The translations under genes and the position numbers were made by a program. This document shows positions 44,528-63,492 of a stretch of 64,000 bases of DNA, in pieces; the stretch's first letter is position 1, and every line of letters starts with the position of its first letter. The stretch lies in NCBI GenBank assembly GCA_016800925.1, contig JABCPU010000086.1, positions 124,001 through 188,000 of the forward strand, given 5' to 3'. The DNA comes from Suillus spraguei. Taxonomy: Eukaryota; Basidiomycota; Agaricomycetes; Boletales; Suillaceae. The notes below the pieces were generated by a model. The model was not told the origin of the DNA. It made no database searches and saw only the letters and a program-made list of their open reading frames with translations.

Positions 44528-45069
44528 ATGGCTGAAGCACGCGGAAAAGCATGGCCCCTCGCGGATGAGGGCCTAACCAACTCCGTAAGTTTTCTCAAGA
44601 GCTCATCACCAACGACTGACATCACGGTATCGTAGATTTTGGACTTGGTCCAACAGGCCGGTCAGTACAAACAACTAAAAAAAGGTGCTAATGAAGGTGA
44701 GAAACCTCCAACCCCTTTTCCGTTTCCTGCACCTGATGTCCACCTTCACAGCGACTAAGACCCTCAACCGTGGTGTGGCGGAGTTCATTGTCCTCACCGC
44801 GGATACCGAACCCCTCGAAATTCTTTTGCACCTTCCTCTTCTTTGCGAGGAAAAGGTATGTTCTCTCGCATGCTATTTACATCGTCAATTACTAACTGCT
44901 AACTATACAGAATGTTCCATACGTGTTCATTCCTTCTAAGGCAGCCCTTGGACGTGCATGCAACGTGTCTAGGCCTGTCATCGCTGCCAGCGTCACGACT
45001 AGCGAGGCGAGGGAACTACAAAGCCAGATCCGCAATGTCAAGATTGCGATCGAAAAATTAATGTTCTGA
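44528..45069 (+). CDS. SNU13: Snu13, 15.5-kDa L7Ae-family RNA-binding protein
   Basis: Kink-turn binding protein of U4/U6.U5 tri-snRNP and C/D-box snoRNPs. Four exons: [59 protein letters not shown] continuing to LPLLCEEK; and [20 protein letters not shown] to IAIEKLMF, with TGA at 45067. The L7Ae signature around [12 protein letters not shown] and the PYVFIPSK loop are intact. Length (about 126 aa) matches the family. The three introns all have canonical ends. Confidence 0.97.
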
Positions 45070-47204
45070 TATTCTCATTGTGGAGCAAGACAGATAACTG
45101 CTGATGTTATGGCTGTTGCATCATTTTTGGTATATCTCCTGTATGGTATGTAGCAATTAGATGTCGAACGTTTAAAGCCCGCCTTTTTGGTTTTTCAGCA
45201 AATGACGCGCGCTTATGCAAATGTTACGACTTACTTCATCTTTCCCAAGAATGCTCAATAAAAACTATGAAGCCAGATGGATAATGGTTCGACAGATATT
45301 AGGCTCGTGACAAGCCTGAGCCTGGCGTATATTACTTGAGTGATGTTCGACAATTCTACAGCTCACTCCATAGATGGACTGGTCACCAGGGCAGGCAATT
45401 GATCTGCAACCTAAATGCAGTATCGAGCGCAAAGGGACCTAGATCTCTGAAGCTACTTGGGCCAGTCGGAGCCGGTTGTGAAATCTAGTTCCGCATGATC
45501 ACAGCTTCGTGCGGTTGCCACGGACACCGAAGGAAAATTATTTCCTGTACAAAGCCACCGGTTTGCCAAAACCTATTCTCTCAATTTTTGGATACAATAA
45601 AATTCAATATGAAATCAAGGCTATATCATAGAGCGCCCGATAAGTAGCCGGTCAATCAGTTGGAAGCTACACCTCACTGCCAGTTGACAGCAGTTGCAGG
45701 TACTTGATCCTCGGATGTCACCCAGTAATTATAGTCATAAAGGTTTCTTCGTCGAAGTATCGATGAGCTTACAGTTATATTCTCAAACGCTACGGATGAG
45801 ACGTCGGCGTCCCAGCACTATCCCGGGCCATAGAGGTGGTCAGATGCGGACAGTGTCAGTCGTAGATCGGCATACTGAGATCTTTGCATACAAGCCGAAG
45901 GAAGGTAAAGCAAGATACACCAGCCTCACAAGTAGCATAACCAGAACTTTAGCAAAGTTATGATTACATTCAAGCGATGAGCTCACGCTGTGAAATCAAG
46001 CTCGTGTGTTCTGGTCAACACTATGAACAGTCTTCGACTCGGACAGTCCATCCTGCTACTAGTAGTTGTTGCAGTTCACGGATTTTTTTTACAAAGCAAT
46101 TGATCCAGATTGTGATACCACAGTACGAGGACCTCCCATATGGTACCTAGTATCCATCGCGGCAACAATAAGTTGAACCAACAACTTGAAAGAAGTCGAG
46201 AATCACTCACCCAGGCTCCTGGGACCTGCGTACTAGTAGGAGTGCAATTAGTTGAAGTGGAATCGCACTGGCGGGGGATCAGTCGCTGCAGAATATTCAC
46301 TGCATCTGTTGCTGAGACCAATAGGAGACTTACTACAGGCCACAGTTCAGAAGAAAGTGGCGGACAAAAGCAACTGTGAAGAGTCTGAGTATGTTGATAT
46401 TAGTAGTGAGAGACGCGATATTAGCATTGTTAGCTTCAAATTTGAAAGCATACACAAGGTACAGTATTCCAACGCACTCGCGCACCTAGAACGTGTCGAA
46501 GTTAGCAGAACTGTTCCGGTACATAGGATATTCAGTGAGAGACCAGCGTCGCCTCTGCGCAGAATACTTGATTTTGCTGTTCTCCGGAAGATGTTAGATT
46601 TTGCTCACCCAGTTCACTTCAAACTACAAAATTCATTATAGGCGAGATGGCCGCTCCGGTAATAGCACCAACCTACTTCCTGTCGGAATGTCAGTGCTAA
46701 TGTGTAGGGTCATTAATGATTCCATTGATATGTATTATCTTGCTTACCCCCAATCGCATACCACCGCAGTGAAGGTTGCAACTAAAAAATTGTTTGGAAA
46801 TAGAGCAAGACTCCGCTAGCGTCATCATCCTACCAATCTCCAGTGTCTCCATGAACCTGCAAAATAGCTGAAAGTACAGGCCTCAAGACCACCAGCTGGA
46901 TTCACTCGAGACTATACCATAGTCATGCTCGGGTCAGTGAGTGGCAAGTTTGATGGTCGTCTAGCAATAACATCCGTGTTAGGTATGCTGGCACTCACTG
47001 GCGCTTTTACCGCTGAAATAGGTGTCATGCAGCTCCTGGATTGCGACATGAGGCCGGCATTCAATGTGATGGTATGATACTGTTCGCAACGACAGCATCG
47101 TGAGTAGCCCTTGCAGAAATGGCTGCTGTCATTGGACAGCAATTACAGGAGTCTGATGATTTCACATATATCTACAACATCTAGGGCTCTATATTTCGGT
47201 ATTT
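45070..47204. other. 2.1-kb gap with no recognisable gene
   Basis: Only short frames were seen, none with a family signature. The right end borders the duplicated ADGF exon. It may hold decayed repeats that I cannot classify. Confidence 0.4.
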
Positions 47205-47535
47205 CTGTAAGTGAGGACCAAAGTTTCACGGACTCAACGTCACAACTTATGAACTTGGCCCACCGTTTTTCCCATGCATCCATGACGGAGTATTTGCTCC
47301 GTTCATCGAGCACGAAAAACTACCCGGGGGAGATTACACAGTGCAAGGAACAAGCACAAGGACATGACTCACAGTGAAATCGGAAAACCAAAGCTTTATG
47401 GACTCATCGCCGCAACCTCTGCTACGAATTTTGTCCATCGTCTTTCCCATGCATCCATGGCCGTGCGCTTGCTCCGTTCATCGAGCATAGAATACTATTC
47501 AAGGAACATCACACAATGCAAGAGGCGAGGACAAT
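47205..47535 (-). repeat. tandem duplication of the ADGF last exon (two ~165-bp copies)
   Basis: The copy used by the gene lies at about 47371-47535. A diverged second copy follows immediately downstream (gene orientation) at about 47205-47370. Shared blocks are CTCGATGAACGGAGCAA, CATGGATGCATGGGAAA and CACTTTGCAT-like flanks. Translation of the extra copy gives LDERSKYSVMDAWEKRWAKF beside LDERSKRTAMDAWERRWTKF in the gene. Confidence 0.75.
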
Positions 47536-49633
47536 GTTATGACTAACAGTAATGCTGTCACGGGCCATCTGGCCGAGAGTAAGGAGTCCCGTAACTTCAC
47601 TTGCTACTAGCACCTTTAAGTAAGTGATGAGTCTTGTTTTACCAAAGGACAAGCCAGGAAGAGGTCACCTGGAAGAAATCAAAAGACAACCCCATACTAT
47701 TGAACATTGCAGGATCGTCGGAAGACAATACCACCGGGATGCCTTGGTTCATGATTATCGGGAGGGGGTGCATAGGCATAGATGAGGTGAGACGCTATCA
47801 TTTATTGAGTCAAGATAGGTTCAGAGGCAGTATACAGAAAATCCTACTAGCACTTCGTTTCTATTAGAAGGTTAGGATAAACTGGAGGCGCCTATTTACA
47901 CGAGTTACTCACGATATAGGGCAGACTTCAATTGCTATCTTCTTCTCTCGACAGATTTGCATCAATTTGGGATGTTTGGCTAGTGAAAGGCTATGCAATA
48001 CGAGTGAGGGAGCGTTTTATGCCATACAATGCACTAACCCGTGTCCGATACGCTTTGTTCCAAGCAGAATAGCATCATACAAGTTCATATCTGCTGCAGT
48101 GCCATCACCTAGAGTTTCACCGGCATGAAAGATGAATGGGATGTCCGGATGCTGCTCCGCGAAACGTAAAAGTGGCTCTGCGTAATAAATTAATGGTTTA
48201 CACTCCGCCCCATCTTCGTGGCCCACAAGATCGAATCCTGGAAGGTAGAACGCTTAGATCTGGGTCCGCTGACATTGAAAAAGCATATGACTTGCCAGCA
48301 ATAAGGTCCGGAAATTCCCGCTTGAATCTGCTACACTGATCTAGCTCTGCTTCCAATTCCTCGGGGGAGATAATTCTTAGAGTACTATAGATAATCTAAG
48401 AAAAAGATGAGTCTGAACTCGAGAAGCTTCAACTGAGACAAAGCTGACCTTCAACCCGGCGAAATCGTCTTCCTGGCCTTTCGCCTTCATTTCCGCTTTC
48501 ATCTCGTTCGTGACCTCTCGAATTATCAAGAGTAGTTCACGTACTTCAAGTTTGGTCTTCGCGTCCTCTGCAAGTATATATCTGACGAGATGTTAGGCAT
48601 CTCAAGCATATTCGTATGTCTTTCCGACTTACTTCTTAAAAAAACTAGTTCGTATCTCAATATACGAGATGCCATCGTCAATCGACGAGCGGATACACAT
48701 CCGCAAGTATTCCTTTTGAATCGGCACGAATCGGATAATGGGCTAAGGTTCATCAGTACAGACTCGGATCTTGACTTCCAGCACGCCACAGGCTCACATC
48801 GGTCACGGCAAAGGTACTCCCAAACTTCTGCCAGATCTGCGAGTCCCTCGCATTAAGGACATGTTCAGCAGGTTGCAAGTTAATATGGAACTGACTTTCA
48901 TCGGCGTATTGTACGTCTCAAACGCATCACTAGGATTGATCATAAAGGCGCTAAGTACCCACTTATCAAATCCAGCGGGACCACCTAGTGCAGGATCAAA
49001 AAGCTCTCGCGCCTCCTTGATAGGAACCCAGCCGCCAGTGTATAAAAGATCTGTGATACCAATTGCGTTGGCGGTAGGATACTGTTCCACGGGAATCGGC
49101 TGGATCTTAGGCAGTACGGTTTCAAGAGAAGCCGCGTCCAATGGACCCGGAACACAGATATGTATCGCGGGATGACCTAGTGCCAGATCGAGCACCATTC
49201 TGGCCTCCACCGAAGCATTCTGGTGTAAATGCAACAGTCCGCCCTTTGGCATCTACAGGGAAACCGCGGACGAGATAGTCGGTGACAGGAAGTACGGTAA
49301 TTTTCCATGCTTACTTTGGAGACTATTTTACTGTAGAGATCTGTCTTTACAATAATATCTTTGGCTGTACGCGAATGTGAGAGGAAGTGTTAAGCGCGAG
49401 TCGAGCCTCATACCATACAGGAACTCCATCCCAGCGTATGGGTGAGGGACATTGTCATGATTAACTGCCCAAACAGAGACAGCTTCTTTAGCACGAATGG
49501 AGCGCGCGACTTCGTCTGCCTTGAGCTCGGTTGTCGAATAATTCGCGCGAACACGGTCAATTCGTAACGCGCGATCCTCTGTGATAAGTTTATCACGTCT
49601 CTGTAAGTAGTCGGCGAGGATTGATGAGGGCAT
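47396..49633 (-). CDS. adenosine deaminase-related growth factor (ADGF/CECR1-like)
   Basis: Zn-dependent adenosine deaminase of the ADGF type, adenosine to inosine. It starts at MPSSILADYLQRRDKLITED (49633) with no obvious signal peptide, then the ADGF-N-like region to PHPYAGMEFLY. After an intron comes AKDIIVKTDLYSKIVSK, then MPKGGLLHLHQNASVEARM with the metal-binding HxH. It continues ISYIEIRTSFFKKY, GFDLVGHEDGAECKPLIYYA, FIFHAGETLGDG and GTKRIGHG. After an intron: FSLAKHPKLMQICREKKIAI and EVCPIS, then RLTSSMPMHPLPIIMNQGIP and VVLSSDDPAMFNSMGLSFDF. The last exons are VLVASEVTGLLTLGQMARDS and YSMLDERSKRTAMDAWERRW, ending EVAAMSP with TAA at 47396. All metal and catalytic motifs (HxH, HAGET, SSDDP) are present. 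The last exon is duplicated downstream. Confidence 0.9.
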
Positions 49634-50861
49634 TTGTGAAGATGAGGAAGATGGCAGTTTCCATGAATCTAATATAGTTATAAACGATCCCCAGTGTGGC
49701 GGGTATGAGTCTGATGACCAACTGTTTCTTAGGCGCATTTGCATATCGATAGATTGCTGTAGGAGCCTGTAGAAGATAGACGATAATTGACCACAAAATA
49801 AGACAAGCTATGCCTATTATCAAGGCGTCTGCTAGCGAGAAAACCTGAGCAATCCAGTGAAGGACACGTAGAAGAACACAGACCAGCCAGAAATGTCTCT
49901 TGAAATTTAACTGGCACTGCACTAATCTGTGTTCCCTGGACTTAGAACGTAGTGGTAGATGAAGGAAGATGTAATCCTCCGAACTACTGCACAGCTGTCA
50001 GCAGTGCATTTGTTATTAGATAAGGTTTATCAGGTGCCGTAACAACTTACGCAGAAATCCTAAAATCACTCAGCATGCAAACGACTCATGCGGCAACATA
50101 CGGTGAGGAGGCGGTCCAGTAGTGATCAGTGGTCTGGTCCAAGCCGATACATCATGATACATCAGATAGCAGGCCACTGAGGCTAGTAATGAACCAGGCG
50201 CTTTATGACAGCGAATGAGACCGGGTACCGGGCTCCGGAATGGAAAATGCTTAACGTGGACTAATATTAATGCTGGTCCTTGCTCTGAGTTCGGGGATCG
50301 AGCCTTCTGTATAGAAGTCTGTAGTGCAGGCATAATGATAGCAGTGTGAGCCCCTTTTAGGTGCATTGGTCCGTGTACATAGAGTTTACGCCAAAAGGCA
50401 GTGATAACGAAAGCTCGCTTCGAACAGTAATATTTATGGGAACTCAGGTAAGCTACAATTACCATAATGTTGTAAGGTAGACGTCGTGCGGATTCTACGA
50501 ACATCACATGTGACAGGAGTGTGACGCGGTCAAAGCTAACTATGCCGAACAGATGCTGACCAGCTGAGGCAGAGACACCTTTAAGTATATGCAGTATACT
50601 TACAAACGTGCATGTACAGCAGTAGAGAACTAGTGTAAATGGCAATGTACATATCATTATGGTATTGGGGCTTGAGGACCTTGTTGGACAAATCATCACG
50701 GTATTTTTTGATTGCTCACGCTGCCCCCATTAAGTCCCTTCTGATATGCATCAATGAACCAAATAGATCTATTTGCGAAGCTGTGCAAGATTAGTCAAGA
50801 GAGTTTAATTATGAGCCTAGTACATGCTGGTGAGCTTTTGTTTAGCTCTAGAAGTTTACCT
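49634..50861. other. gap with one unrecognised frame
   Basis: A minus-strand frame of 209 codons (50070-50699, starting MMICPTRSSSPNTIMICTLP) has hydrophobic stretches but no family resemblance. Another frame (49593-49922) overlaps the ADGF start in a different frame. Neither is supported as a gene. Confidence 0.3.
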
Positions 50862-51134
50862 CATCAGGAAATTCACACATTCCTTGACGTGCCCTTATGC
50901 GGACTTATTTACACTTAACTGCCTTGGTGAAATTGAATCTACTTGTCCAAAATTTCAATGTGAATGAATTCAGAAAAAAAAAGTTGAGATATATTAATAT
51001 ACATGTTTTATTGTATTTCGCACTCAAAAAATATAAGATATGCCAGGTGAATGATGTGAGAGAGAGCAAACAAGTTTTGAGATAAGTGAGTTAAGCTGAT
51101 TAAGCATGTTAAGGAATGTGTGAATTTCCTGATG
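50862..51134 (+). mobile_element. MITE copy 1 (273 bp)
   Basis: Terminal inverted repeats start CATCAGGAAATTCACACATT and end with the inverse complement. It is flanked on both sides by CT (50860-50861 and 51135-51136), read as a 2-bp target duplication. AT-rich interior with GAGTGCGAAATACAATAAAA on the other strand; no coding capacity. Nearly identical to copies at 59800-60073 and 62265-62537, which are inverted relative to this one. Confidence 0.88.
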
Positions 51135-51589
51135 CTGTTACTCACATTTTCATCCTTGTTTTTGAGGTATCAGGACTTGTTCTTTATTGCCCACCATGCA
51201 TTAAGGCCTGATGCACAACAGTTTCGCCACAATGACCATGAGGATCTCGGCTTCACGGCACCGCCTTGCTCCGGAGTCAACAAGCTTTGACCTCCGCTAG
51301 GAGGCAAATTCTACAGAACCGAAGTTAACTGACGCAAGGCTTCACTTTTTCATATTCTGCAAATATCATAATGTGCATTAGGCTATTATCTACACTTTGA
51401 CATTACAGATTTTTTTCTCATTTCCTTGTTGAATTGATAACCTATTTTGTGTATTTTGTCATGCAAATGTCATGATTTGTCATGTGATGAATCTGCATGA
51501 CATCTACCTTACTTCCAGTAAGTATATAAGTAGACCGGCATCACCAAAATTACCGAATCCAGACATGGTCATATATTACCATGTCGGAG
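51135..51589. other. gap between MITE copy 1 and the E1 LTR
   Basis: AT-rich sequence without a recognised gene. The five bases before the E1 LTR are CGGAG; no matching copy can be checked because the other end of E1 is truncated. Confidence 0.4.
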
Positions 51590-52288
51590 TGTTAAGACCG
51601 TACTCAAAGGGAGAGAGATCTGAAGGGCTTTGGCCTCAGTTCGTGCACTGTGCCCCTTTCCTGAGTAATGCCCCTTATTTCAGGGAGAAGGTATACATCC
51701 GAAGATCCGGAAGGAGTTGCATGATGGATCCGGACGTCCAAAGGTTATCCGGAATGTAGGAATAAAACAAGGATTAAGACTAGCTTCAGAATGAGTTCCT
51801 AACTAGAAACTAACAGAGATAGACTATAGGAATCAATCCCAAGTCTCGGAAGATGACTTAGAGCAGAAAGTGACTTAAGTCTGGAGGAAGCAGAATGAGT
51901 AGAATCTAAGATGATATTTGAACTAAGGTTCTACAGAGATCTACAAGTGGTTTATATACTGTAAGTATCTAATACGGATTATCAACAAGTCCGGGACTGA
52001 GGGCTATGTACAAAGTGTAACGGAAGTCTATTAGTTAATGTGCAGCAGATCAGTAAGCACGAATCGGAAATGAAACACAGGTAACGGATCAGTGACACAG
52101 GACAGAAGTATACACAGCCAGAATACCAGAAACAGGAGGAATGACAAAAGGAGATAGACGCAGATATACACAAGGGGGTTAGAGTGCGAGAAGTGGGCAC
52201 ATTCGGATGGGTGATCCGGACAGGATCTGTGGACCGGACGGAAATAGAATCGATCGGATCTGATCGGATATAGTCAGATCTGGGATTA

Positions 52289-53818
52289 TGTTACAACCAT
52301 GCAAAACTGGAGATTAGTAAGAAGTCCTGGTCTTACATGGGGTTGTACCAGAGGGTCGTAAAGTCAAAGGGGCTTGGCCTCAGCTCGTACGCTGTGCCCC
52401 TTACCCGAGTATGTGCCCTTAATTTTGGATGAAGTCCAAGGGAGAGTTCTGGTGAAGTCCGGATGGAGGGTCTGGACGAACTCTAAGGCAGGATAGCTTG
52501 ACAGAGCTCCGATGGACTTCCGGATGAGCGCGGGATTGCGCCGGAACTATTTCCGGAAGGTAGGGAGTAATGGTAACACTACTGGAACAAGCTCCAAGTA
52601 GAATGGATGAAGGATGGACCACTGGACAAAGTCCAGGGCAGGATAGGAGCAGAGCTCCAGAGGGAAAGATGATCCATAGATGTCAGAGGATAGGATAGGA
52701 TGGATCCGGAGGACTAGGGGTCCGAAGGTCCGGAGCTCAGAGGAGCGGAGGAGTGGAGGAGCGGAGGAGTGGAGGAGTGGAGGAGCGGAGGAGCGGAGGA
52801 GCGGAGGAGCGGAGGAGCGGAGGAGCGGAGGAGCGGAGGAGCGGAGGAGCGGAGGAGCGGAGGAGCGGAGGAGCGGAGGAGCGGAGGAGCGGAGGAGCGG
52901 AGGAGCGGAGGAGCGGAGGAGCGGAGGAGCGGAGGAGCGGAGGAGCGGAGGAGCGGAGGAGTGGAGGAGCGGAGGAGCGGAGGAGCGGAGGATCAGATGA
53001 TCGGATGATCGGATGAGCATAGCTCTGTGAATCTTAGAGGAAGTGTTGGCTACTAGAGAGGAGTAGGTCTGGATATGGTGTAGAGATAGTATAGACTACT
53101 CCGGACAAGGTCCGGAATAGAAACAGACAGTATAAGACTACCAAAGGTAGAGTTGGAGGTGAAACAGATGATAGACGGAGATGGATGAAGTCCGAAAAGA
53201 TTATAGGACATAGAATCAAAGCTCCGGCCTAGGGAGTGATCCCATAGGCCTGAGTCGGAAGCTTACAAGGGCCGGAGCCCAAGTGCAAGAACGGAAACGG
53301 AGTTATATAGACATGATAACAGGATACAGAGTAATCAAGGAATATACAGAAGTAGGAACAATGAATCAGACTGAGGTCTGCAGGAGTTGTACTACAAGTT
53401 TATATACTGTAGGTAGCATGCCGGAAGGCAAGTAAGGATAGTCCGAGGCTATGTTTGAGGCATTGCGGAACACAAGGCTATGAACTCTGAAATAAGACTT
53501 GTACGAAATATCTTATCAAGACAGAAGTCAAGATAACCGAAAGCCGGACACAGGTATTAACCTAAAAGGAGTAATGCGCAGGTGCGTGGGAATAGTTTCG
53601 GATATGGACACGGATTGGATATGGACATGGATCGGATGGGTGGATCAGATCGGATGAATGAACTGAGTCGGATATGGATATGGATTAGATATGGATGGAT
53701 ATTGATTGGAGTGGATGGGTGGATTGGATATGTGAGCTGGATTGGATGGGTGGACTAGGATGTATGGATTGGGTGTCCAGATGTCCATGGATCAGACCTA
53801 AATGTACGGTATATGACA
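52289..53818 (-). mobile_element. solo LTR of a related retrotransposon, nested in the E1 3' LTR
   Basis: Begins TGTTACAACC and ends GGTATATGACA on the plus strand, with TG...CA ends. The 5-bp duplication GATTA flanks it at 52284-52288 and 53819-53823, so it inserted as a transposon into the already present E1 LTR. No internal coding region is present, so it is a solo LTR left by LTR-LTR recombination. It contains an 8-bp minisatellite and a minus-strand TATA-like GTATATAAAC near 53400. Confidence 0.85.
52743..52992. repeat. 8-bp minisatellite (GCGGAGGA)n, about 31 units
   Basis: Nearly perfect tandem repeats of GCGGAGGA with a few GTGGAGGA variants at the ends. Because 8 is not a multiple of 3, every frame on both strands stays open and gives a cycling RSGGAEER-type or LLRSSAPP-type peptide, so the open frames here are artefacts. 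Confidence 0.97.
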
Positions 53819-53841
53819 GATTAGAAGTATGGTATATGACA

Positions 53842-53855
53842 GTATCCCCCCTTTA
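53842..53855 (-). promoter_or_regulatory. polypurine tract of E1
   Basis: On the minus strand TAAAGGGGGGATAC lies directly before the 3' LTR start TGTCATATACC, the place expected for the plus-strand primer in reverse transcription. Confidence 0.75.
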
Positions 53856-54037
53856 GGGTCAAACCCCTGAGGCACAGGAAGCGTCGATCTGGATCGGACA
53901 AGATTAATGCAGGACAATGGGGAAGTTTGATGGTTGTAGTGCTGAGTCTGTAATCTGACAGATATACGGATGTCAGACGTCCGAAGTGATTCCTACCCCC
54001 ACTTCATACCCCTGTTAACAAAACTTGCTTTTAAAAC

Positions 54038-55028
54038 ATGTCTGGAAAGAAATCTGATGCCCCTAAGTCTGCTGCCGACATTGTGGCAGATCTGGAACAG
54101 CAACTGGCTGCTGCTAAGGCTGCAGCGGAAGCCGAGGCAGAGCAGAAGTGGAAAGAGGCGGAGGAGCGGAAAAGGCATGAGGAGTTGAAGCAGATTGAGT
54201 TGGCGGAGATCCGGAGGGAAATGGAGGAAAAGAGATGGAGGGCTCTGATTGAGGCTCGGGTGAGTGATGTGGACTCTTCTAGATCTGGATCCTAATGGAT
54301 TGGCAAGGCCAAGGCTGCTCCTGCATCTGGAGCAAAGGATGGGTACTGCTCCCGTTGTGTCACTAAGGACTGGATGTGTCAGTGGGGTGATGCTGAGAAG
54401 AATCCCTTGGTGAGTCGTCTGAAAACCTTCAGATCTGCTGATTTCGACGTTTTTGTAGATTAAGTCCTGTGACGTCTGCTGGAAGGACAAGGCCACTTGT
54501 CCTGGAAGGCCTGGATTCGTCAAGGGGCCCAAGGGCCGGAAGAGGCAGCGTCCTGCTGGTACTCCGTCTCCGAAGGGCAAAGGCAAGCGCCGTCAGAAGA
54601 GCCCTACTCCAGATGTGGTGGATGTGGATGATTTTTCTAATCTGGTGACTATTGAAGGTACGGATGAGGATGTCGTCAAATATGATGATCAGGCTTGGGT
54701 GGCCGCTGCCAATGGCATCATTGCTGAGCTGGCACGGACTAATGGGCTTCTCCAAGATGGTATTGCGGCAGCGGAAGGGAGTTGGATTGCCATGGAGCGG
54801 ATGAGCTCTACCATGGAGGCCTTCCTCCAGCAACAGAGGGAGTTCCAGGCCCTGCTCATTGAGGAAATCTGGACCGGATTTAGGCTTTCTGTTTCTGCTG
54901 GATCTGACAAGGATGGCACTGGTGAGGAGATTGGAGAAGAGGTGGCGGATGAGACTGGAGGAGAGATGGCGGATGGGACTGGGGAAGAGACTGGAGGTGC
55001 CGGAGGTGAAATGGAGACTGGCGCTTAG
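54038..55028 (+). CDS. accessory antisense gene in E1: coiled-coil protein with two CxxCx6C motifs
   Basis: A gene on the strand opposite to pol, placed between the pol stop (55087) and the 3' LTR, tail-to-tail with pol. Three exons: 54038-54259, 54308-54409 and 54459-55028, with 48- and 49-nt GTGAGT...AG introns; without splicing the frame closes. The 297-residue product starts MSGKKSDAPKSAADIVADLE and has a long charged helix (LEQQLAAAKAAAEAEAEQKW), likely a coiled coil. Next comes a cysteine module, YCSRCVTKDWMCQWG then IKSCDVCWKDKATCPGRPG: C-x2-C-x6-C-x13-C-x2-C-x6-C, close to a fungal Zn2Cys6 cluster but with a slightly long linker. The second intron falls exactly between the halves. A basic patch (KGPKGRKRQR) and an acidic Gly/Glu-rich tail (GEEIGEEVADETGGEMADGT) follow. 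It is intact while pol is dead. The role is unknown; nucleic-acid binding is inferred. Confidence 0.8.
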
Positions 55029-55086
55029 TCTGGATCTGGATTTCTGTTACTGCCCTTAATGTACTTGTATTTTGTTATGTACTTTT

Positions 55087-58000
55087 TCAAGCAATGGGAC
55101 CAGGTTTGTCTGGATATGCTGAGTGGAAGTCTGCTACAAGATCTGATGCATTTCCAAGTTCTGTGGCAAGTAACCAGGAAGTTTCTTCATCCGTTCCTTC
55201 ATATCTGGACCAACGGATGAGGTATAGGAGTTGGCAATGGTGTCTATGATGGTCCAATTTAAAGTCTAGGATTTTGGATATCTCATACTCCAGTTCTCCA
55301 TCAACTTCAACTGGAGGTGGAGGAGGTTGAATGCAATTAGGGATGGTGTTCGGGACTGCTGGCTCTAACTGTGAAACATGGAATACAGGGTGAATGGAAT
55401 GCATGAAATCTGGAAGTCGGATGGCAAAGGAATGACTGCCTGGATGGGATATGATCTCAAACGGACCTAAATTCTTTTCCGAAAGTTTCTTTGATGGACG
55501 AGTGGAACGGAAGTACTTGGCTTTGATGAAGACTTGTTCTCCAATCCGGAAATCCAGAGTGGGTTGTCTTTTAGCATCTGCAGGTCCTTGATAGCATTTC
55601 TGGGCTTCGGACATCTCTACTTGAAGAAACTGGTGAAGTTCATTAAGGTCTAAGGCATATTCCTGGGCACAGATGGAGGGTAGGTCGCGTTCCGGATGGA
55701 TGGAAATGTTCAGATGATAACCCTTATTGGGGAAGAAAGGTGAGACTCCGGTAGTGGCACTCGGAGCATTATTGTATGCGAACTCTGCGAGGGGCAGTAG
55801 CTCGGACCAGTTGTCCTGCTGATATGTAGTTGCAGTAGATCCGGAGGTACTGTTCCAGCATTTGGTTGGCATGTTCTGTTTGTCTGTCCCCTTCCGGATG
55901 ATATCTGGACGTGAAGTGTAGGACCATGTCTAATGCCTTTCCTAAGGAACGGAAGAAGTGGGATACAACTCTGTTCCTCGATCTGAGGTTACATGGGATG
56001 GAACACCATGCTTGGAGAAGACATGGAGGAGAAATAGGCGGGCGAGATCAGGAGAAGTAATGGTGTTGTGGGTCGGGACAAATATGGCTTGCTTGGATAG
56101 GTGATCTATGATGACAAGGATGGCTGTAAAGCCGGATGAGTCCGGAAGTTGCTCAATGAAATCCATAGAGATGGAGTTCCAAGGTTTCTCTGGGACGGGG
56201 AGTTGCTTGAGTAATCTGTAGGGTTTATGTCTCGGAACTTTGGCTCGGGCGCAGGATGTGCAGGATCTGACATATTCTTTGACATAGGTTCGTATTCTGG
56301 GCCAGGTGTAGTCGCGTTGGACGAGCTCGAGGGTACGATTCTGTCCGAAATGTCTGGATAGGGGGTGATCATGGCAGTTACGGAGGACACATAGTCATAA
56401 GTCATTGGCTTCCGGAACATAGATACGGTTATCGCAGCAAAGGAATCCACAATCATCCACTGTCCATCTCAGATCCGAAGGTACCAGTAGATGCATCCGT
56501 GCAATAGGATCATTGGGGAGTTCAGTCAAGATATCTTTCCAAAGGTTTTCCATATCCATGAGAACAGCTGCTCTAAGAACCGGAGGTGCTAGGGTTGTGG
56601 CTCGTAGGGATGAAGCTAACTGTTCGGAGGTGAATACTGGGCAGAAATTATGAGGATTGACTTGAGTGTAGTCCTTATCCCCCTCTTTGGGGTAGACGTC
56701 CCAACGTCTAGTAAGGGAATCCAGTTTGGCTCCAAGTTTTCCAGGATGGAAACGGATGATGAGATTGAACTGATGGAGGAATTCGGACCAGCAAGCCTGT
56801 TGGCGAGAGAGAAGTTTGGTAGTGGAGAAGTACTTGAGGTTTTTGTGATCCGTAACAACATCTATAGGCTCGGACGAGCCTTCTAGGTAATGTCGCCAGG
56901 TCCAAAAGCTTCGTGGATGGCTAGGAGTTCCTTGTCATGGGTGTCATAATTGAGTTCCAGAGCGGACAGAGTACGGGAATAATAGGCAACTGGACGAAGC
57001 TCTGAGTCCGGACATACAATGGACAGTATTCCAGCTATGGCATAATCAGAGGCATCGGTTTCCACAACTATAGGAACATCCAGAATCCAGTGGGTAAGTA
57101 CTGGAGCGGAAGTGAAGGCTTTTTTGAGTGCTCTGAAGGATTTCCGACAGTCTTCAGAAAAGTTCCAAGGGACTCCCTTGCGCGTGAGCTGAGTGAGGGG
57201 AACTACAATATCTGAGTAGTTGAAGATAAACAACAATAGAAATTTGCAAATCCGAGGAAGGATTGAATGTCCTTGATCTTCCAAGGTTCTGGCCAGTCGA
57301 CAATAGACTGGATTTTCTTGGACGACATTGTCAAGCCGTCTGGAGATAGCAGGTAACCAAGATACTCGACAGAGGATGAGTGGAATTCGCATTTCTTGGG
57401 TTTGGCATAGAGTCGATGTTTACGGAGGCGGCGTAGTACTTCTCAGATGTGTTTCCTATGACTCGCGAGGTCTTCGGAATAGATAAGGATGTCATCCAGA
57501 TATACGATAATGCATATATCCAGCATATTGGCAAACACGCTATTAACAAAGCATTGAAAGCCGCTGGAGCATTTGTAAGGCCTTCTGGCATTACCAGCCA
57601 TTCATAGGAACCATAGCGCGTTCGGAAGGAAGTCTTCCACTCATCCCCTTCCGCTATCCGGACGAGATGGTAAGCGGAATGGAGGTCAATTTTGGTGTAA
57701 ACTTTAGTGTGGCTCGGAGAGTCTAGGAGGTCGGCAATGAGGGGTAACGGATATTGGTCTTTCTTGGTAATCTAATTGAGGCCTCAGAAATCTACACAGA
57801 GGTGAAGGGAACCATCCTTCTTTTTTACAAACAGGACAGGGGCTCCGTGAGGAGAGGACGAGGATCGGAGGAGTCCGGATGAGATGTTTTCATCGAGGAA
57901 CTTTCGGAGAGCTTCAAGCTCGACCAGAGAGAGAGAATATATGGTTCTGAGAGGTGGACTAGCTCCTTCCTCTATCTCGATTTTGAGGTCATAGGGTCGG

Positions 58001-59726
58001 TGAGGAGGTAACTGTCCAGCTTTGCCTTTGTCAAAGACATCCGCAAACTCGTGGTATTTGGAAGGGATTCTGGAGAGATCTGGAGGTTCAGATGATATGG
58101 ATGCAGATTGGAGATTAACCCCAGAGGGACGGAGATAGATGCTGAACTGAGTGGATCCTTCTAACTTGCAGGCACAGCAAAAGGCCACTGCATTTATCAG
58201 AGATATGTTAGGGACTGAAGTGTCAGCAGAGGGTTCGGATTTGGTCAGAGGAGGAGTCTCTGCCATGGATGGGATGCTCTGAGGCAACGGAGATATTGGA
58301 GGGGAGGATTCCTCCTTGGATAGAATATCCGGAGGTAATGGAGGTGTCAGATTGGATTTTCCTGCCACAGATGGTGTGTTGGGAGGCAGCGATGATGCAG
58401 ATGGGGTCAATGGCATTCCTTGTACAGTAGTTCGGAACTCAATGCTGCCCAATACCCAGTCAATCAACGGATTGTGTCGGGTGAGCCAGCTATATCTGAG
58501 AACGATATAACATGAGGAATCCAAAGGGGTAACATAGAATGTATTGGAGGTGATTACACCGGAGGGGAATTGGACGGATAAGTTTATGGCTTCGACAATA
58601 TTGTTATTGCATGTACCATCAAATAAACAGAGCGGAAGCGGAGGAATCTGATAGGTAGGGATTTTATGTTTTTGGATGAAATCAGTGTCTATGAAGCAGT
58701 GGGAGGAGCCACAGTCTATGAGGGCCGGAAAGTCAGATATATTGGAGAAAGACGGAAGAGAGACATATGGACACAGAGAGTTCGGATCAGGAAGAGTTAC
58801 AGCATTGAGTCATAGCTCCGTTGTATGGATTGGGCCAATGCAACCCTCATCCTGCACGGAGTCAGGAGGGTTGCGGACTAATTTTTTGCCTTGTCCGAGG
58901 CTTCCAGTTCAGTTTACGGAGTGAGCATGGTAGCACGGCCTTTGGCAGCGCGTGAAGTGGATTTGGTGCAGTCTTGGGCAGTGTGACCAGGTCTGCCGCA
59001 GAACATACAGAGCCTTTTGTCGATATGCCTCTGACGCTCCTGGGTGGTTAGCTTTCCGTCCACACCAATGATGTTAGGAAGATCCGAAGCCTTCGGGGCA
59101 AAGGAGGTTGTGGGGGATGTGGGCTTATTGAATTTGGGCGTATTGGATCCAGATGAGTTGGAGTTCGTCTGGTCGGATGCTGACTGCCTAGGCAGATTGG
59201 AAGAGGCGGCTTTACTCTCTTGGGGTGACTTCGCCCCTCCGTTCCCAGTAACAGGCGTCGATGGTCTGGGTGAGAGTCTTGAACTCAGAAAGGGTAGTGG
59301 GTTTACCCATACGACTAATCTCATCTTTGATTCGGGCTGGAAGTCCATTGTAGAATTGGCATTGTAGAGCTCCGTCTCCCCATTCACGTACTTGGGAGGC
59401 AAGTCGCTGGAATTCTACAATGTACTTGTTGATGCATTGTCCATCATGCATATGGAGCTGTTCCAGCTGCATTTTGGTGGGTTGCCACATAACTCATCAT
59501 CGAAGCGAATGGTTGGGCGTGAATTAGTGTCTGGGTCATCTGTGTTCTGCGTTGGTGTAACCAGATCTTGTCTGGCTTGACGCGCAGAGATGCTTTGACC
59601 TATGTCGCTCATGCTCACACGGCATTGAGAGAAGCTGGTGAATGTTTGGATGATGGATGTCGGATCTCGTTGGATTGGACCAAGTCCAGCTCCTTGGAGA
59701 GTGTTCTGAGTTTTACGGGGAGGCAT
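55087..59726 (-). pseudogene. E1 gag-pol remnant (gag, protease, RT, RNase H, integrase, chromodomain)
   Basis: Gag starts MPPRKTQNTLQGAGLGPIQR (59726) and has an internal deletion near 59490: E2 continues past FDDEL, E1 jumps to WQPTKMQLEQLH. A zinc knuckle CMFCGRPGHTAQDC lies near 58990. The protease site reads ALIDCGSSHCFID (about 58720). RT has [40 protein letters not shown] and an [14 protein letters not shown] active site near 57500. RNase H has VVETDASDYAIAGILSIV. Integrase has VIIDHLSKQAIFVPTH, VTSDRGTE and RQTEHANQMLEQYLR. A chromodomain (YEISKILDFKLDHHRHHC, WSRYEGTDEETSW) ends at 55087. Lesions include TGA and TAG stops near 57780, a frameshift after NAPAAF near 57560, one after DRGTE near 55980 and one near 55830. 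It is not functional. Confidence 0.9.
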
Positions 59727-59779
59727 GATGTGGGATGGTTTAGAGAATGTTACTCGGAAAGGTGTGAGTTCGAATATAC

Positions 59780-60158
59780 TGTTAAGACCATACTCAAAGC
59801 ATCAGGAAATTCACACATTCCTTAACATGCTTAATCAGCTTAACTCACTTATCTCAAAACTTGTTTGCTCTCTCTCACATCATTCACCTGGCATATCTTA
59901 TATTTTTTGAGTGCGAAATACAATAAAACATGTATATTAATATATCTCAACTTTTTTTTTTCTGAATTCATTCACATTGAAATTTTGGACAAGTAGATTC
60001 AATTTCACCAAGGCAGTTAAGTGTAAATAAGTCCGCATAAGGGCACGTCAAGGAATGTGTGAATTTCCTGATGAGGGAGAGAGATCTGAAGGGCTTTGGC
60101 CTCAGTTCGTGCACTGTGCCCCTTTCCTGAGTAATGCCCCTTATTTCAGGGAGAAGGT
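59780..60158 (-). repeat. E1 5' LTR remnant containing MITE copy 2
   Basis: Positions 59780-59799 plus 60076-60158 match the first ~100 bases (plus-strand reading) of the E1 3' LTR, starting TGTTAAGACCATACTCAAAG. The outer part of the LTR is missing and the junction falls at GAGAAGGT, six bases before an LRR-gene ATG. Confidence 0.85.
59800..60073 (-). mobile_element. MITE copy 2 (274 bp), inside the E1 LTR
   Basis: Same terminal inverted repeats as copy 1 but in inverted orientation. AG at 59798-59799 and 60074-60075 is the 2-bp target duplication; removing one copy and the MITE restores the LTR sequence CTCAAAGGGAGAGAG seen at 51605. It therefore inserted after E1. Confidence 0.9.
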
Positions 60159-60163
60159 CAAAA

Positions 60164-62673
60164 ATGTCTCGCATTCCTCAACCATCTCAACATCCAACGG
60201 TGAAGATGGCGCTCATGCCCCCTTCTTGCTCAAGAGCTCCGTCGCCGTCCAAGCCTACCCCAAGTGTATCTTCCCCTCACGTGAGGACTAAGTCAGTCCC
60301 CAAATCTCCGTCTAAGGCTATCCGTAGGCCACCGCCCATCGAAAATGAGCCGCCCGTTCCCAAAATAACATTGAGCATCAAGGAAGCTGTCGCTCTGAAG
60401 CGAGCAGAAGCCAGAAAGGCCGTATCTACTCGAGTAGGCCTTGGCAATAGTGCAGGCTTTGGTAATTTTGAGACCCTCGAAGATGCAGATCCAGTGGCAG
60501 CGAAGAAGGATGAAGAGGAAACACCCGAATTAGGGAGGTGGTCCGTGAAAGAAACAATTGAACGTGCTCGGAGCACAGGTGAGTGGATGTGATTCATGTT
60601 GAATGCGTGCCGCTGATCAGACAAGGTCATTATTGCAGGTACCATCAATTTGTCCTCTCGCTCTTTACCATGCATTCCTTCTGCTTTGTTTAACATTCAT
60701 TTGGGAGTAACTCCCGACCCACTGAAGTCAGCAGCTTCAGAGCCACCCATATCGCCCTCCATGGACGGTTCAAGTTCGTCCAGGCGGACTGGCCAACGAG
60801 AAGGTCCAGCGTGGTTTGAAGCCCAAGACTTGCACGTACTCAAAGCGTGGAATAACGATATTATCGAAATACAGCACGAAATCTCTCTCTTTGGATCATT
60901 GAAGACCGTTGATGTGAGTGTTTACTACGTCCTCCCACGATATATGGTATTTATGTGGTCCATTGCAAGTTACATCAAAACAAGATTGTTCTCCTACCTG
61001 ATACCTTCGCCAACCTTACGGCTTTAACTATCCTAGATCTTTCTCATAACTCCCTCACTACGCTACCTTCAAATATCTTCGCATTACCCAATCTCACGGT
61101 CATGAACCTGTCCCATAACGCCCTCAGCGAGCTCTCCTTTGGTGCCCCGTTCTCGAAGTCTTCCTCGCGCAAAGCGCGGAACAATACCTTGAGTTCCGGA
61201 GGATTCTTTGGTCCTGTCATTACAAGAGCCTCGTCGCCACTGCCACGCCTTTCTGTCCTGGATGTGTCTCATAATAAACTCACCGCTTCCACCATAGACC
61301 ATGCCAATCTGCCTCCGTTGATAACGAAAGCCAACTTTGCCGCAAATCCTCTGGCTTTAGGAGACTCTAACTCCACACCCGCTTTGATTCGAGCCCTCAG
61401 TCACTTGGAACATCTCAAGGAACTTCACTGTGAAACCGCTGACATCGGCGATGATGCCTTCCTCAGCAACTTATCCACTTCGGAAAGTCATTGTTTCCCT
61501 CGGTTACAGATCCTTGACATGGGTGAAACTCGGGCTACCATGGAAGGCTTGCAATCTGCGTTATCTGAGCTGAAGCAGGATATCACGTATGATTTTACTA
61601 CTGAAGAGCCTCCCGAAGGCACTCTGAGGGTGTCTATCGGCAAAAAGGTTGTTCGGGAACCTTGGGAGCTAGAGGCGGAGAGAAGGGTGAAGAACCGCGT
61701 GTCTAAAAATGCGATAAGTACGGAAAGCACCGGTGATCCCAGCAAAACAGACATAGGCCACAATAATACAGATGTCGTCAAGGAGGCTTGGGAGATCGAA
61801 GCAGAACAGGGTTTGCTAACAGAAGGTGGGCGTCGACGGGCAAGAGCGGCGGTGGTAACGTCTGCAGTAGATATTGCAGCACCTCTGAACCCGAGTTCCC
61901 TTATCGGACACGGACACCCGCCCACGTCTCCTAGCACCTCGCAATCATCATCGACCGCAAGTTTAACGAACCCTCAATACTACAATGCTGCTACTCAAAC
62001 ACTCACTTTACCCTCGCTCTCAGCTCCGACAAAGTGTCATGCTCGGTCCTTCTCTTTAGCAACTCCATTCTCAAGTCCACTGTCCTCTCAAGGCAAAACA
62101 GATTTTGCTCTGCCTACACCGGCACTTCCCCTTGTCGCCATATCAGCTCAACCGTTCGCACAGATGCTCAAGATTCTCGTGCTGAGCAACCGCAAATTCG
62201 ATCTTTGTGTTTCCCTCCCAACCACTGGCGAGGTCTTACTTCCAAGCCTGGAGGAACTCGTTCTCATCAGGAAATTCACACATTCCTTGACATGCTTAAT
62301 CAGCTTAACTCACTTATCTCAAAACTTGTTTGCTCTCTCTCACATCATTCACCTGGCATATCTTATATTTTTTGAGTGCGAAATACAATAAAACATGTAT
62401 ATTAATATATCTCAACTTTTTTTTTCTGAATTCATTCACGTTGAAATTTTGGACAAGTAGATTCAATTTCACCAAGGCAGTTAAGTGTAAATAAGTCCGC
62501 ATAAGGGCACGTTAAGGAATGTGCGAATTTCCTGATGCTGGAAGGGTGTGGATTCGGTGATCAGGTCTCCGTGACACATCAAGCTGACACGGGAACTGCC
62601 ACTTCTCCGCGCTCGAATGATACATTTCTGCCTTTATTGATGCGCGTTTTCCCGAGTCTGCGGACATTGGATC
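60164..62673 (+). pseudogene. leucine-rich-repeat protein gene, disrupted by a MITE and truncated by E2
   Basis: An LRR protein. Exon 1 starts MSRIPQPSQHPTVKMALMPP (60164) and ends RARSTG. Exon 2 runs TINLSSRSLPCIPSALFNIH to FGSLKTVD. Exon 3 has clear LRRs: LHQNKIVLLPDTFANLTALT, ILDLSHNSLTTLPSNIFALP, NLTVMNLSHNALSEL, LSVLDVSHNKLTAST. It continues with repeated EPWELEAERRV / EAWEIEAEQGL motifs and LKILVLSNRKFDLCVSLP, up to LPSLEELV. MITE copy 3 sits inside exon 3 after LEELV. Beyond it LEGCGFGDQVSVTHQAD, LLMRVFPSLRTLDLSYT resumes in frame if the MITE and one CT are removed. The gene is then cut by the E2 LTR at 62674. The upstream promoter is also replaced by E1 LTR sequence. As it stands the product would end inside the MITE. 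Confidence 0.85.
62265..62537 (-). mobile_element. MITE copy 3 (273 bp), inside an LRR exon
   Basis: Same orientation as copy 2. CT at 62263-62264 and 62538-62539 is the target duplication. Its ends match CATCAGGAAATTCACACATT and the inverse complement. It adds stops to the LRR reading frame. Confidence 0.93.
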
Positions 62674-63442
62674 TGTCATATACCATACTTCTAATCTCAG
62701 ATCCGATCATATCCGTCCAGATCCGATCGTTTCCATATCCGTCCGGTCCACAGATCCTGTCCGGACCACCCATCCGAATGTACTCACTTCTCGCACCTTA
62801 ACTCCCTGGTGAACATCTGCGTCTATCTCCTTTCGTCATTTCTCCTACTACTGGTACTCCGGCTGTTTATATTTCCGTCCTGTGTTACTGATCCGTTTCC
62901 TGTGTTCATTTCCGATTCATGCTTACTGATCCGCTGTGCAATAACTAATAGACTTCCGTTACACTTCGTACATAGCCCTCGGTCCCGGACTTGCTGATTA
63001 TCCGTCTTAGATACTTACTGTATATAAACCACTTGTAGATCTCCGTAGAACCTTAGTTCGAATATCATCTTAGATTCTACTCATTCTGCCTCCTCCGGAC
63101 TTAAGCCACTCTCCGCTTTAAGTCACCTTCCGAGACTTAGGATTGACTCCTATAGTCCATACCTCCGACTCTATCTTCGGATAGTCCATCTCCATTAGTT
63201 TCTAGTTAGGAACTCGTTCCGAAACTAGCCTTAATCTCTTTCCTCTCCTTACGTTCCGAATTACCTTCGGACGTATTATATCCGACACCTTCGGACACCC
63301 GGATCCGTCACGCAACCCCTTCCGGGTCTTCGGACGAATAACTCCTCCCTGAAATAAAGGGCATTACTCGAGAAAGGGGCACAGTGTACGAACTGAGGCC
63401 AAAGCCCTTCGGATCTCTCTACCCTTGAGTACAGTCTTAACA
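62674..63442 (+). repeat. E2 5' LTR
   Basis: Full-length copy with TG...CA ends. It carries TATATAAA at 63021-63028 and, about 34 nt downstream, AGTTCGAATAT (63055-63065). Confidence 0.9.
63021..63028 (+). promoter_or_regulatory. TATA box of the E2 LTR promoter
   Basis: TATATAAA in the LTR, conserved in E1. Its distance to AGTTCGAATAT fits a transcription start at the latter. Confidence 0.6.
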
Positions 63443-63456
63443 GTATATTCGAACTC
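63443..63456 (+). promoter_or_regulatory. putative self-priming primer-binding site of E2
   Basis: GTATATTCGAACTC starts directly after the LTR. It lacks the TGG expected for priming by a tRNA 3' end. Instead ATATTCGAACT (63445-63455) is the perfect reverse complement of AGTTCGAATAT at 63055-63065, near the predicted 5' end of the RNA. Confidence 0.6.
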
Positions 63457-63492
63457 AAACCTTTCCAAGTAACTTAGCAACCATCCCATATC

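What the first reader, a model, noticed from the sequence alone, without database searches (positions are those of the whole stretch)
54038..55028. Spliced antisense accessory gene inside a Ty3/gypsy element, with a Zn2Cys6-like cysteine module
Between pol and the 3' LTR of E1 lies a gene on the opposite strand with two short introns (48 and 49 nt). After splicing it encodes 297 residues: a coiled coil, C-x2-C-x6-C-x13-C-x2-C-x6-C, a basic patch and an acidic tail. The surrounding gag-pol is full of stops and frameshifts, yet this frame is intact. An intron-containing antisense gene cannot derive from the element's own spliced genomic RNA, because its introns are not recognised on the pol strand, so it can persist through retrotransposition. 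It might control the element, or be a captured host gene.
Basis: partly seen in the sequence, partly recalled or inferred. Interest (0 to 1): 0.85.

Follow-up and report, generated by a model that had tools for sequence, protein, structure and literature searches.

The report
Backward spliced gene in fungal retrotransposon
A fungal jumping element carries, written backwards near its end, an intron-bearing gene for a zinc-finger-like protein, and the element's DNA is full of a short motif resembling what such proteins bind, so the element may recognise itself.

Summary
Window 54038-55028 (+) is a three-exon gene (introns 48 and 49 nt, 297 aa) opposite the pol of a chromodomain Ty3/gypsy element, in a genome whose named protein matches are Suillus. 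It is no accident of one copy. In 40 scored copies both introns keep GT..AG (40 of 40); the spliced frame has pN/pS 0.22 (shifted frames 1.1-1.3; 0.31 in the one opposite-strand frame whose third positions coincide), pol 0.19. Beside all 39 pol matches that reach the pol C-terminus (52 best of 3565 candidates scored) lies the gene, in three cases only part of it. The six cysteines resemble the fungal Zn2Cys6 cluster with its halves swapped; the window protein itself has no Pfam match. Unexpectedly, the whole element is saturated with CGGA/TCCG (34-39 per kb in young copy L024, 4-8 in host DNA of the window; 0-3 per 350 bp in pieces of four other LTR elements), beyond what codon choice explains. 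I propose a nuclear protein that recognises its own element through dense CGG-type sites, comparable to Arabidopsis VANC. Antisense genes at this place are known (plant Retand and Grande, fungal Boty brtn). Transcription, splicing and binding are untested.

The parts
54038..54259 (+). antisense gene, exon 1 (coiled-coil region, 74 codons)
   Evidence: pN/pS 0.22 over 276 pairs
54260..54307 (+). intron 1, 48 nt, GTGAGT..CTAAT..AAG
   Evidence: GTGAGT and AAG in 40 of 40 copies, YTRAY branch-point-like motif in 39 of 40
54308..54409 (+). exon 2, first half of the cysteine module
54410..54458 (+). intron 2, 49 nt, GTGAGT..CTGAT..TAG
   Evidence: 5' site GTGAGT in 39 and GTAAGT in 1 of 40; AG in 40 of 40; an intron at the same place in a copy of a second element family
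54459..55028 (+). exon 3, second half of the cysteine module, basic stretch, helical core, acidic tail, stop
53842..54037 (+). leader between the 3' LTR and the gene's ATG; holds the polypurine tract of the element (on the minus strand)
   Evidence: found and aligned in 19 of 20 copies
51590..53841 (-). 3' LTR span of the element, enlarged in this copy by an 8-bp minisatellite and other repeats
55087..58809 (-). pol pieces, broken by stops and frameshifts
   Evidence: protease and SH3 over, chromodomain below the Pfam cut-off in the window pieces; the RT to integrase part by match to the pol piece of sister copy L022 (L009 is the window copy); ORFs
58914..59801 (-). gag pieces, one with a zinc-knuckle match just below the Pfam cut-off
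60074..60158 (-). remnant of the 5' LTR (100% to 51608-51692), separated from gag by an inserted repeat of about 275 bp
51590..59801 (.). CGGA/TCCG-rich DNA: 184 sites, 51 expected from dinucleotides
   Evidence: in window 1-44000 275 observed, 292 expected

Best explanation
SHOWN: a chromodomain Ty3/gypsy retrotransposon family in this genome carries, between pol and the 3' LTR and on the opposite strand, a gene with two conserved introns whose protein is under purifying selection about as strong as that on pol; the element's DNA is saturated with CGGA/TCCG. INFERRED: the gene is transcribed from the 3' LTR or leader, antisense to gag-pol, and spliced by the host; because the introns are recognised only on that strand, the genomic RNA carries them unspliced through reverse transcription. 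The product dimerises through its N-terminal coiled coil, enters the nucleus through its basic stretch, and uses a swapped-order Zn2Cys6-like cluster to bind CGG-type sites. Because such sites lie about every 30 bp along its own element and are sparse elsewhere, it marks element DNA and sets its activity: it activates the LTRs or keeps the copy from being silenced, a role like that of Arabidopsis VANC proteins, in an anatomical position like that of HBZ of HTLV-1.
For: Gene: spliced frame pN/pS 0.22 in 24 intact copies and in all 40, the same for exon 1 and for exons 2+3, against 1.28 and 1.09 in the shifted frames and 0.56 unspliced (intact set); last 289 codons of pol 0.19 over 19 copies. 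Splice sites in 40 of 40 although intron lengths vary. Keeping intron 2 in truncates 24 of the 24 intact frames, keeping intron 1 in 23 (in L041 no stop was met in the stretch read). Gene or part of it beside 39 of 39 pol matches. Six cysteines at identical spacing in 31 of 31 intact own-genome proteins. Zn_clus: 2 of 14 relatives scanned (P0090, P0095) pass Pfam's cut-off, 8 match below it, 4 not at all; swapped order from P0024, first half to profile 16-34, and second halves to profile 2-18 or 2-16. Motif: L024 LTR 36, gag-pol 34, gene 39 sites per kb against 4.2-7.8 in the eleven 4-kb bins of window 1-44000; the 8 most enriched of 512 pentamer pairs in L024 all contain CGGA/TCCG; pieces of four other LTR elements hold 0-3 per 350 bp, windows of L024 gag-pol 6-16; above every one of 2000 shuffles of the copy's own synonymous codons in two pol pieces and three antisense CDSs, not so in six long open frames of the host part. 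The Zn2Cys6 class prefers CGG triplets, some members CCGG or CCGGAGTTA (PMC12719309, passages).
Against: No RNA, protein or binding data. The window protein has no Pfam hit, nor have its two module fragments a Zn_clus hit, nor the first-half fragments of P0090, P0026 and P0025; the middle spacing of 13 exceeds the range I recall for canonical Zn2Cys6 (5-12). AlphaFold gives the module only about 60 pLDDT, and the model has no PDB match. The motif lies in coding DNA as much as in the LTR, whereas VANC21 motifs lie mainly in noncoding parts (PMC5735166, passages). In 6 of 14 copies with an uninterrupted pol piece the gene was not scored intact, so a broken gene does not stop spread, or copies help each other, or single-base assembly errors add breaks. 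The motif controls are small: four pieces of 350 bp. One host bin, 44001-48000, has a ratio of 1.51. The link between protein and motif is circumstantial.
Confidence: 0.42

Rival explanations
1. The gene is a real element-encoded protein but acts as a particle, import or integration accessory factor (bringing the pre-integration complex to the nucleus or choosing sites), not as a reader of CGGA; the motif has another cause.
For: Basic stretch and long N-terminal helix in a relative; review authors suggest accessory roles such as those of retroviral accessory proteins for antisense aORF products (PMC7264820). The same purifying selection would be expected.
Against: Does not explain the Zn2Cys6-like module or its coincidence with an element-wide CGG-type motif.
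Confidence: 0.28
2. The protein is a repressor that limits copy number (self-restraint), with antisense transcription also pairing with gag-pol RNA.
For: Overlap of the two transcripts is likely, since pol and gene end about 60 nt apart; HBZ promotes latency and APH-2 inhibits replication (PMC10186651, table in passages); dsRNA production is suggested for plant antisense aORFs (PMC7264820).
Against: Self-restraint is hard to keep by selection among copies; protein-level constraint is not explained by RNA alone.
Confidence: 0.15
3. The coding strand is the pol strand: the sense ORF of about 310 codons that overlaps the gene in several copies is an env-like third gene, and the antisense frame is its mirror.
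For: One sense frame is free of stops over the exon 3 region in 29 of 40 copies; a stop-to-stop sense ORF of 308-342 codons starts there in 8 of the 20 long loci; a different sense phase has pN/pS 0.31.
Against: In the open sense phase pN/pS is 1.29 (intact copies) or 1.36 (all 40); the phase with 0.31 is the one whose third positions coincide with the antisense third positions. Antisense splice sites and branch motifs are conserved.
Confidence: 0.03
4. A captured host gene that hitch-hikes without function for the element.
For: Introns and the Zn2Cys6-like module look host-like. No exhaustive search for host relatives was possible.
Against: Constraint similar to that on pol; gene or part of it beside 39 of 39 pol matches; a second element family has it in the same place, so it is old in the lineage; all 71 loci looked at are element-derived.
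Confidence: 0.06
5. The CGGA/TCCG saturation comes from mutation or methylation context, not from binding.
For: The motif contains CpG, and older copies have less CpG. One control piece of another gypsy element also shows an excess of the deaminated forms (1.62-fold).
Against: L024 has CpG observed/expected 0.99 and is still about 3-fold enriched; the decayed window copy has fewer CpG than L024 in all four 5' contexts, by 29-46%, CCG by 38%, so CCG is not specially spared; both strands carry the motif, though in the LTR mostly TCCG in pol sense.
Confidence: 0.2

Closest known systems
Boty-like retrotransposons of Botrytis cinerea with antisense gene brtn (Zhao et al. 2011, Virology; seen only as cited in PMC8365987, PMC4227169 and PMC7264820)
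   Same: [quoted passage not shown]
Plant Retand (TRP28), Grande gene23, RIRE2 antisense aORF-3R genes (PMC11963269, abstract and discussion; PMC7264820, parts 1-2 of 3)
   Same: [quoted passage not shown] nuclear (Grande) or predicted DNA-binding (TRP28); function unknown.
   Different: Plant, and no Pfam family in common; here two conserved spliceosomal introns and a Zn2Cys6-like module; no CGGA-type self-motif is mentioned in what I read.
HBZ of HTLV-1 and APH-2 of HTLV-2 (PMC10186651, passages)
   Same: Antisense transcript from the 3' LTR, spliced, nuclear protein, HBZ with transcription-factor features.
   Different: A retrovirus; bZIP (HBZ) rather than zinc cluster; works-like only.
VANC proteins of Arabidopsis VANDAL elements (PMC5735166, passages)
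   Same: A protein of the element and a short motif dense in that element and rare elsewhere.
   Different: VANDALs are DNA transposons (recalled); VANC21's motif lies mainly in noncoding regions, often in tandem repeats; binding and loss of methylation were shown there, not here.
Fungal Zn2Cys6 (Gal4-type) transcription factors, PF00172
   Same: Two CxxCx6C halves, basic stretch, coiled coil, acidic tail; relatives P0090 and P0095 pass the Pfam cut-off.
   Different: Halves in swapped order, middle spacing 13-15, coiled coil before rather than after the cluster (the usual order is recalled), window protein without a match.

Membership tests
Antisense additional ORF between pol and 3' LTR (aORF-3R) | Opposite strand, between pol and 3' LTR | tested here: met
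   in the 20 long loci a pol C-terminus match precedes the gene, and an LTR start follows it in 17 among the hits printed and in the other three (L015, L018, L027)
Antisense additional ORF between pol and 3' LTR (aORF-3R) | Present in most copies, conserved like gag-pol | tested here: met
   34 of 39 from the listed tables, 39 of 39 after looking at the other five, three of which hold only part of the gene; 52 of 3565 pol candidates were scored; pN/pS 0.22 against pol 0.19
Antisense additional ORF between pol and 3' LTR (aORF-3R) | Transcribed from its own or an LTR antisense promoter | not testable with these tools
   no RNA data
Boty brtn | Homologous protein | not tested
   brtn sequence not held
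Retand TRP28 (pfam04195 as named in PMC7264820) | TRP28 domain | tested here: not met
   no Pfam family at E <= 1
Zn2Cys6 (PF00172) | Score over Pfam cut-off | tested here: not met
   window protein 0 families. Of 14 relatives scanned, P0090 (21.2) and P0095 (21.3) pass the cut-off of 21, 8 match below it, 4 have no match
Zn2Cys6 (PF00172) | Six cysteines in two CxxCx6C halves | tested here: met
   31 of 31 intact own-genome proteins
Zn2Cys6 (PF00172) | Order of the halves and loop length as in the family | tested here: not met
   second halves of P0090, P0025 and P0026 match profile 2-18 or 2-16, first half of P0024 profile 16-34; loop 13, in P0024 15, in P0090 14 (read)
Zn2Cys6 (PF00172) | Binds CGG triplets | not testable with these tools
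   element DNA is rich in such sites; binding not shown
VANC anti-silencing proteins | Short motif dense in own element, rare elsewhere | tested here: met
   the control of four other LTR elements is small
VANC anti-silencing proteins | Protein binds the motif and lowers methylation | not testable with these tools
   none
HBZ-type antisense bZIP | bZIP domain | tested here: not met
   no Pfam match
Chromodomain Ty3/gypsy (chromovirus) | Protease, RT, RNase H, integrase, C-terminal chromodomain | tested here: met
   protease over cut-off in the window; RT, RNase H, integrase and chromodomain over cut-off in sister copy L022; the window's own chromodomain match is below cut-off

The most novel reading that the evidence does not exclude
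An LTR retrotransposon that recognises itself: its antisense, spliced gene makes a swapped-order Zn2Cys6-like protein that binds CGGA/TCCG, and the whole element, coding sequence included, has been driven to carry such a site about every 30 bp so that its DNA can be told from host DNA and kept active. That would be a self/non-self labelling system in a retroelement, evolved independently of VANC.
Probability: 0.3. Interest if true: 0.92.

Novelty: new variant of a known kind. Interest (0 to 1): 0.72.

Why it matters
Antisense accessory genes of LTR retrotransposons are widely described but without a known function (PMC7264820, PMC11963269). Here one comes with measured purifying selection, conserved introns and a candidate DNA target that can be tested in vitro in one experiment. 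If the CGGA sites are its target, it gives a function to this kind of gene and a fungal, retroelement counterpart to VANC self-recognition. If not, the element-wide motif saturation is itself an unexplained DNA-level pattern.

Tried and rejected
Single-copy intactness as evidence of selection: rejected as weak. Sense-strand env-like ORF: rejected by pN/pS in its phase. LTR-specific enrichment of CGG sites: not found, gag-pol is about equally rich. CpG-context preservation as cause of the motif: not supported. PDB sequence searches, NCBIfam and fold search: nothing informative. The first structure job used a single sequence and was poor. Frequency-class test of codon variants: 51 synonymous, 52 nonsynonymous and 5 stops among singletons against 46, 28 and 0 among variants in five or more copies, Fisher p = 0.051: suggestive only. 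Loci whose pol end was not seen (L033, L049, L052, L055) were checked as possible host genes; all four carry the element's leader upstream, so they are element fragments. Literature: ten searches were answered; seven of them looked for such a gene or self-recognition in fungal or Suillus elements, and in their listings I saw only Boty brtn and the plant cases; one listed Boletales genome paper had no such passage (PMC5689174). Most subscription journals are not held.

Full report
What is there. The window lies in an 86 Mb genome of 1256 contigs. The gene on the + strand has exons 54038-54259, 54308-54409 and 54459-55028, introns of 48 and 49 nt, and 297 codons. It converges on a broken minus-strand pol. 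In the window's pieces Pfam finds protease and SH3 over the cut-off, and chromodomain and a gag zinc knuckle below it; in sister copy L022 RT, RNase H, integrase, SH3 and chromodomain are over the cut-off. The 3' LTR begins at 53841 and in this copy is stretched to about 51590 by an 8-bp minisatellite and other repeats; of the 5' LTR a remnant at 60074-60158 is recognisable.

Copies. The DNA search scored 40 copies of 220 candidates. In 40 of 40 both introns begin GTGAGT (one GTAAGT) and end in AG; a branch-point-like YTRAY is present in 39 of 40 for intron 1 and 40 of 40 for intron 2. Intron lengths vary (48-49 and 44-49), not in multiples of three. 24 of 40 frames are intact by my rule of an ATG, no inner stop, 270-330 residues and GT..AG introns; three of these (L031, L033, L040) have altered C-terminal tails, and two copies (L028, L037) with no stop in the stretch read were counted as not intact. 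With both introns kept in, all 24 meet an early stop; with only intron 2 kept, all 24 (L015 late, at 238); with only intron 1 kept, 23, and L041 met none in the stretch read. Of 14 further copies, chosen from the protein search and in part more divergent, intron 1 keeps GT..AG in 12 and intron 2 in 13; in L052 a deletion slightly larger than intron 1 has removed it.

Selection. Pairwise pN/pS in the spliced frame is 0.22 for the 24 intact copies (276 pairs) and 0.22 for all 40 (780 pairs); exon 1 and exons 2+3 each give 0.22; the last part of exon 3 (the repeat-rich tail) was left out. In the intact set shifted frames give 1.28 and 1.09, the unspliced reading 0.56, opposite-strand frames 1.29, 1.32 and 0.31, the last being the one whose third positions coincide with those of the gene. 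The last 289 codons of pol give 0.19 over 19 of 20 copies, the divergent L027 dropped. The gene is thus held about as tightly as pol. A pol-sense ORF of 308-342 codons overlaps the gene in 8 of 20 long loci but, over exon 3, lies in the phase with ratio 1.29-1.36.

Position. In the 20 long loci the pol C-terminus match ends about 60 nt from the gene's stop codon (in L016 it stops 16 residues short), and an LTR start lies beyond the gene in 17 among the hits printed and in the remaining L015, L018 and L027; the 196-bp leader with the polypurine tract was aligned in 19 of 20. These loci were chosen by the gene. A separate search with an 867-residue pol piece (52 of 3565 candidates scored) gave 39 matches reaching the pol C-terminus. 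34 have a gene listed in the earlier tables on the opposite strand at 61-130 nt; the five others, looked at directly, have it too, three of them only in part (L076 at a contig end, L077, L079). Sixteen matches run from residue 23 or earlier to the end without a stop; leaving out the query copy itself (gene intact) and the one cut by a contig end, the gene is intact in 8 of 14 (one of the 14); of the six others one (L064) only lacked a stop in the stretch read. So copies with both open exist, and so do copies with a broken gene. Gaps in exon 1 over 54 copies are mostly single-base deletions at different places, with no single-base insertion, which may be decay or assembly error.

A second family. 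L080 (one 1.5-kb stretch, a broken copy) holds a gene whose exon 3 is 56% identical to S. tomentosus P0025. It converges on a pol C-terminus 73% identical to the window's, with an intron at the place of intron 2 and no intron 1. The layout is therefore older than the window's family, and intron 1 was gained here or lost there. A similar locus on C467 could not be fetched.

Host gene or element gene. Of 71 fetched loci L009-L079, 67 contain a match to the pol end; the other four (L033, L049, L052, L055) carry the element's leader upstream of the gene. The remaining matches (174 in all, 132 of 454 candidates scored) were not looked at one by one.

The protein. The six cysteines keep the spacing 2-6-13-2-6 in 31 of 31 intact own-genome proteins. 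Of the 89 proteins then held, many of them fragments or models lacking one half, seven show both halves, with a loop of 13 (15 in P0024); P0090 has 14. Pfam finds nothing in the window protein. Of 14 relatives scanned, two pass the Zn_clus cut-off, eight match below it, four not at all. The second half of the module matches profile positions 2-18 or 2-16 (P0090, P0025 and P0026 as fragments); in P0024 the first half matches 16-34. First halves as fragments gave no Zn_clus hit, and neither did the window's own two fragments. My reading is a Zn2Cys6-like cluster with its halves in swapped order; this rests on weak scores. AlphaFold on P0025 with 17 relatives gives a long N-terminal helix (residues 12-89, pLDDT mostly 96-98), a second helix (200-269, 60-87), and a poorly defined module; no PDB fold match.

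The motif. Looking for possible CGG sites I found that the whole element is enriched, not just the LTR. In L024 the eight most enriched of 512 pentamer pairs all contain CGGA/TCCG; on the host side ATCCG ranks 245. Density is 36, 34 and 39 per kb in LTR, gag-pol and antisense gene of L024, against 4.2-7.8 per kb in the eleven 4-kb bins of window 1-44000 (observed/expected 0.66-1.36) and 1-9 per kb in five element flanks, most of them CpG-poor; bin 44001-48000 has 7.8 per kb at 1.51 times expectation. Four 350-bp pieces of other LTR elements (two copia, two other gypsy) hold 0, 1, 2 and 3 sites; L024 gag-pol windows of that size hold 6-16, host windows 0-6. In pol the sites occur in all three codon phases. 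Counts exceed every one of 2000 shuffles of the copy's own synonymous codons in L022 pol (75 against 41.3, maximum 58), L024 pol, and the antisense CDS of L042, L024 and L009 (the last 17 against a maximum of 16); six long open frames of window 1-44000, not all of which need be genes, stay below their means (500 shuffles each). Uniform synonymous choice gives the same picture except for L009, the CpG-decayed window copy (17 against a maximum of 18). L024 has CpG observed/expected 0.99, so decay is not the cause. In the decayed L080, CGGA/TCCG are 7 against 3.3 expected and one-deamination derivatives 1.63-fold, above the largest of 29 host windows (1.37); but two of the four 350-bp control pieces also show 1.39 and 1.62, so this is weak evidence for the second family.

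Mechanism. Zn2Cys6 proteins prefer CGG triplets; Gsm1 binds CCGG, and with Rds2 CCGGAGTTA (PMC12719309, passages; CGG sites also PMC9000951, passages). VANC21 of Arabidopsis binds a short motif that is dense in its own element and rare elsewhere, with local loss of methylation (PMC5735166, passages). Fungal DNA transposons, but no retrotransposon found in that study, encode TET/JBP dioxygenases thought to counter silencing (PMC12730594, passages). HBZ shows that an antisense, 3'-LTR-driven, spliced gene can encode a nuclear regulator (PMC10186651, passages). Putting these together I favour self-recognition by a CGG-type binder. That the gene is real and constrained I hold at about 0.95; that its protein acts on the element's CGGA sites, at about 0.3-0.4.

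Known and new. Antisense genes between pol and the 3' LTR are known in plants (PMC7264820, parts 1-2 of 3; PMC11963269, abstract and discussion) and in fungal Boty elements (brtn, seen only through citing papers). I therefore file this as a new variant. In the listings of my searches and the passages read I met no description of conserved introns in such a gene, of the swapped Zn2Cys6-like module, or of the motif saturation.

Noticed in passing
window 51590-59801; L024 1043-8979: Element-wide saturation with CGGA/TCCG, 3-4 times the dinucleotide expectation, including coding DNA; became part of the main argument.
   Followed up: yes
window 59798-60076, 50859-51136, 62265-62537: Three copies of a repeat of about 275 bp with about 31-bp terminal inverted repeats, MITE-like; one sits between gag and the 5' LTR remnant.
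   Followed up: partly
window, roughly 52700-53050: 8-bp minisatellite inside the 3' LTR span. A similar peptide repeat, seen by eye, in the S. spraguei gene model P0002 suggests that model is misannotated.
   Followed up: partly
window 62674-64000: A second element of the same family on the + strand, 97% to L024, with an LTR at 62674-63442 and its leader and gag start running off the window end; its CpG content suggests it is younger.
   Followed up: partly
L080 (C924:356250-357750): Second element family with the same convergent antisense gene, an intron at the place of intron 2, no intron 1.
   Followed up: partly
L055 (C381:45500-46830): A copy whose gene reads through to residue 293 with both introns and the leader upstream, but no pol end after the stop: a fragment, or a gene copy that has lost its element.
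   Followed up: partly
exon 1 of the antisense gene, own-genome copies: Private 1-nt deletions without any 1-nt insertion, also in young copies; assembly error or deletion bias.
   Followed up: no
L009, L014, L015 and other older copies: Fewer CpG than the young copies, as expected for methylation-linked C-to-T decay.
   Followed up: partly
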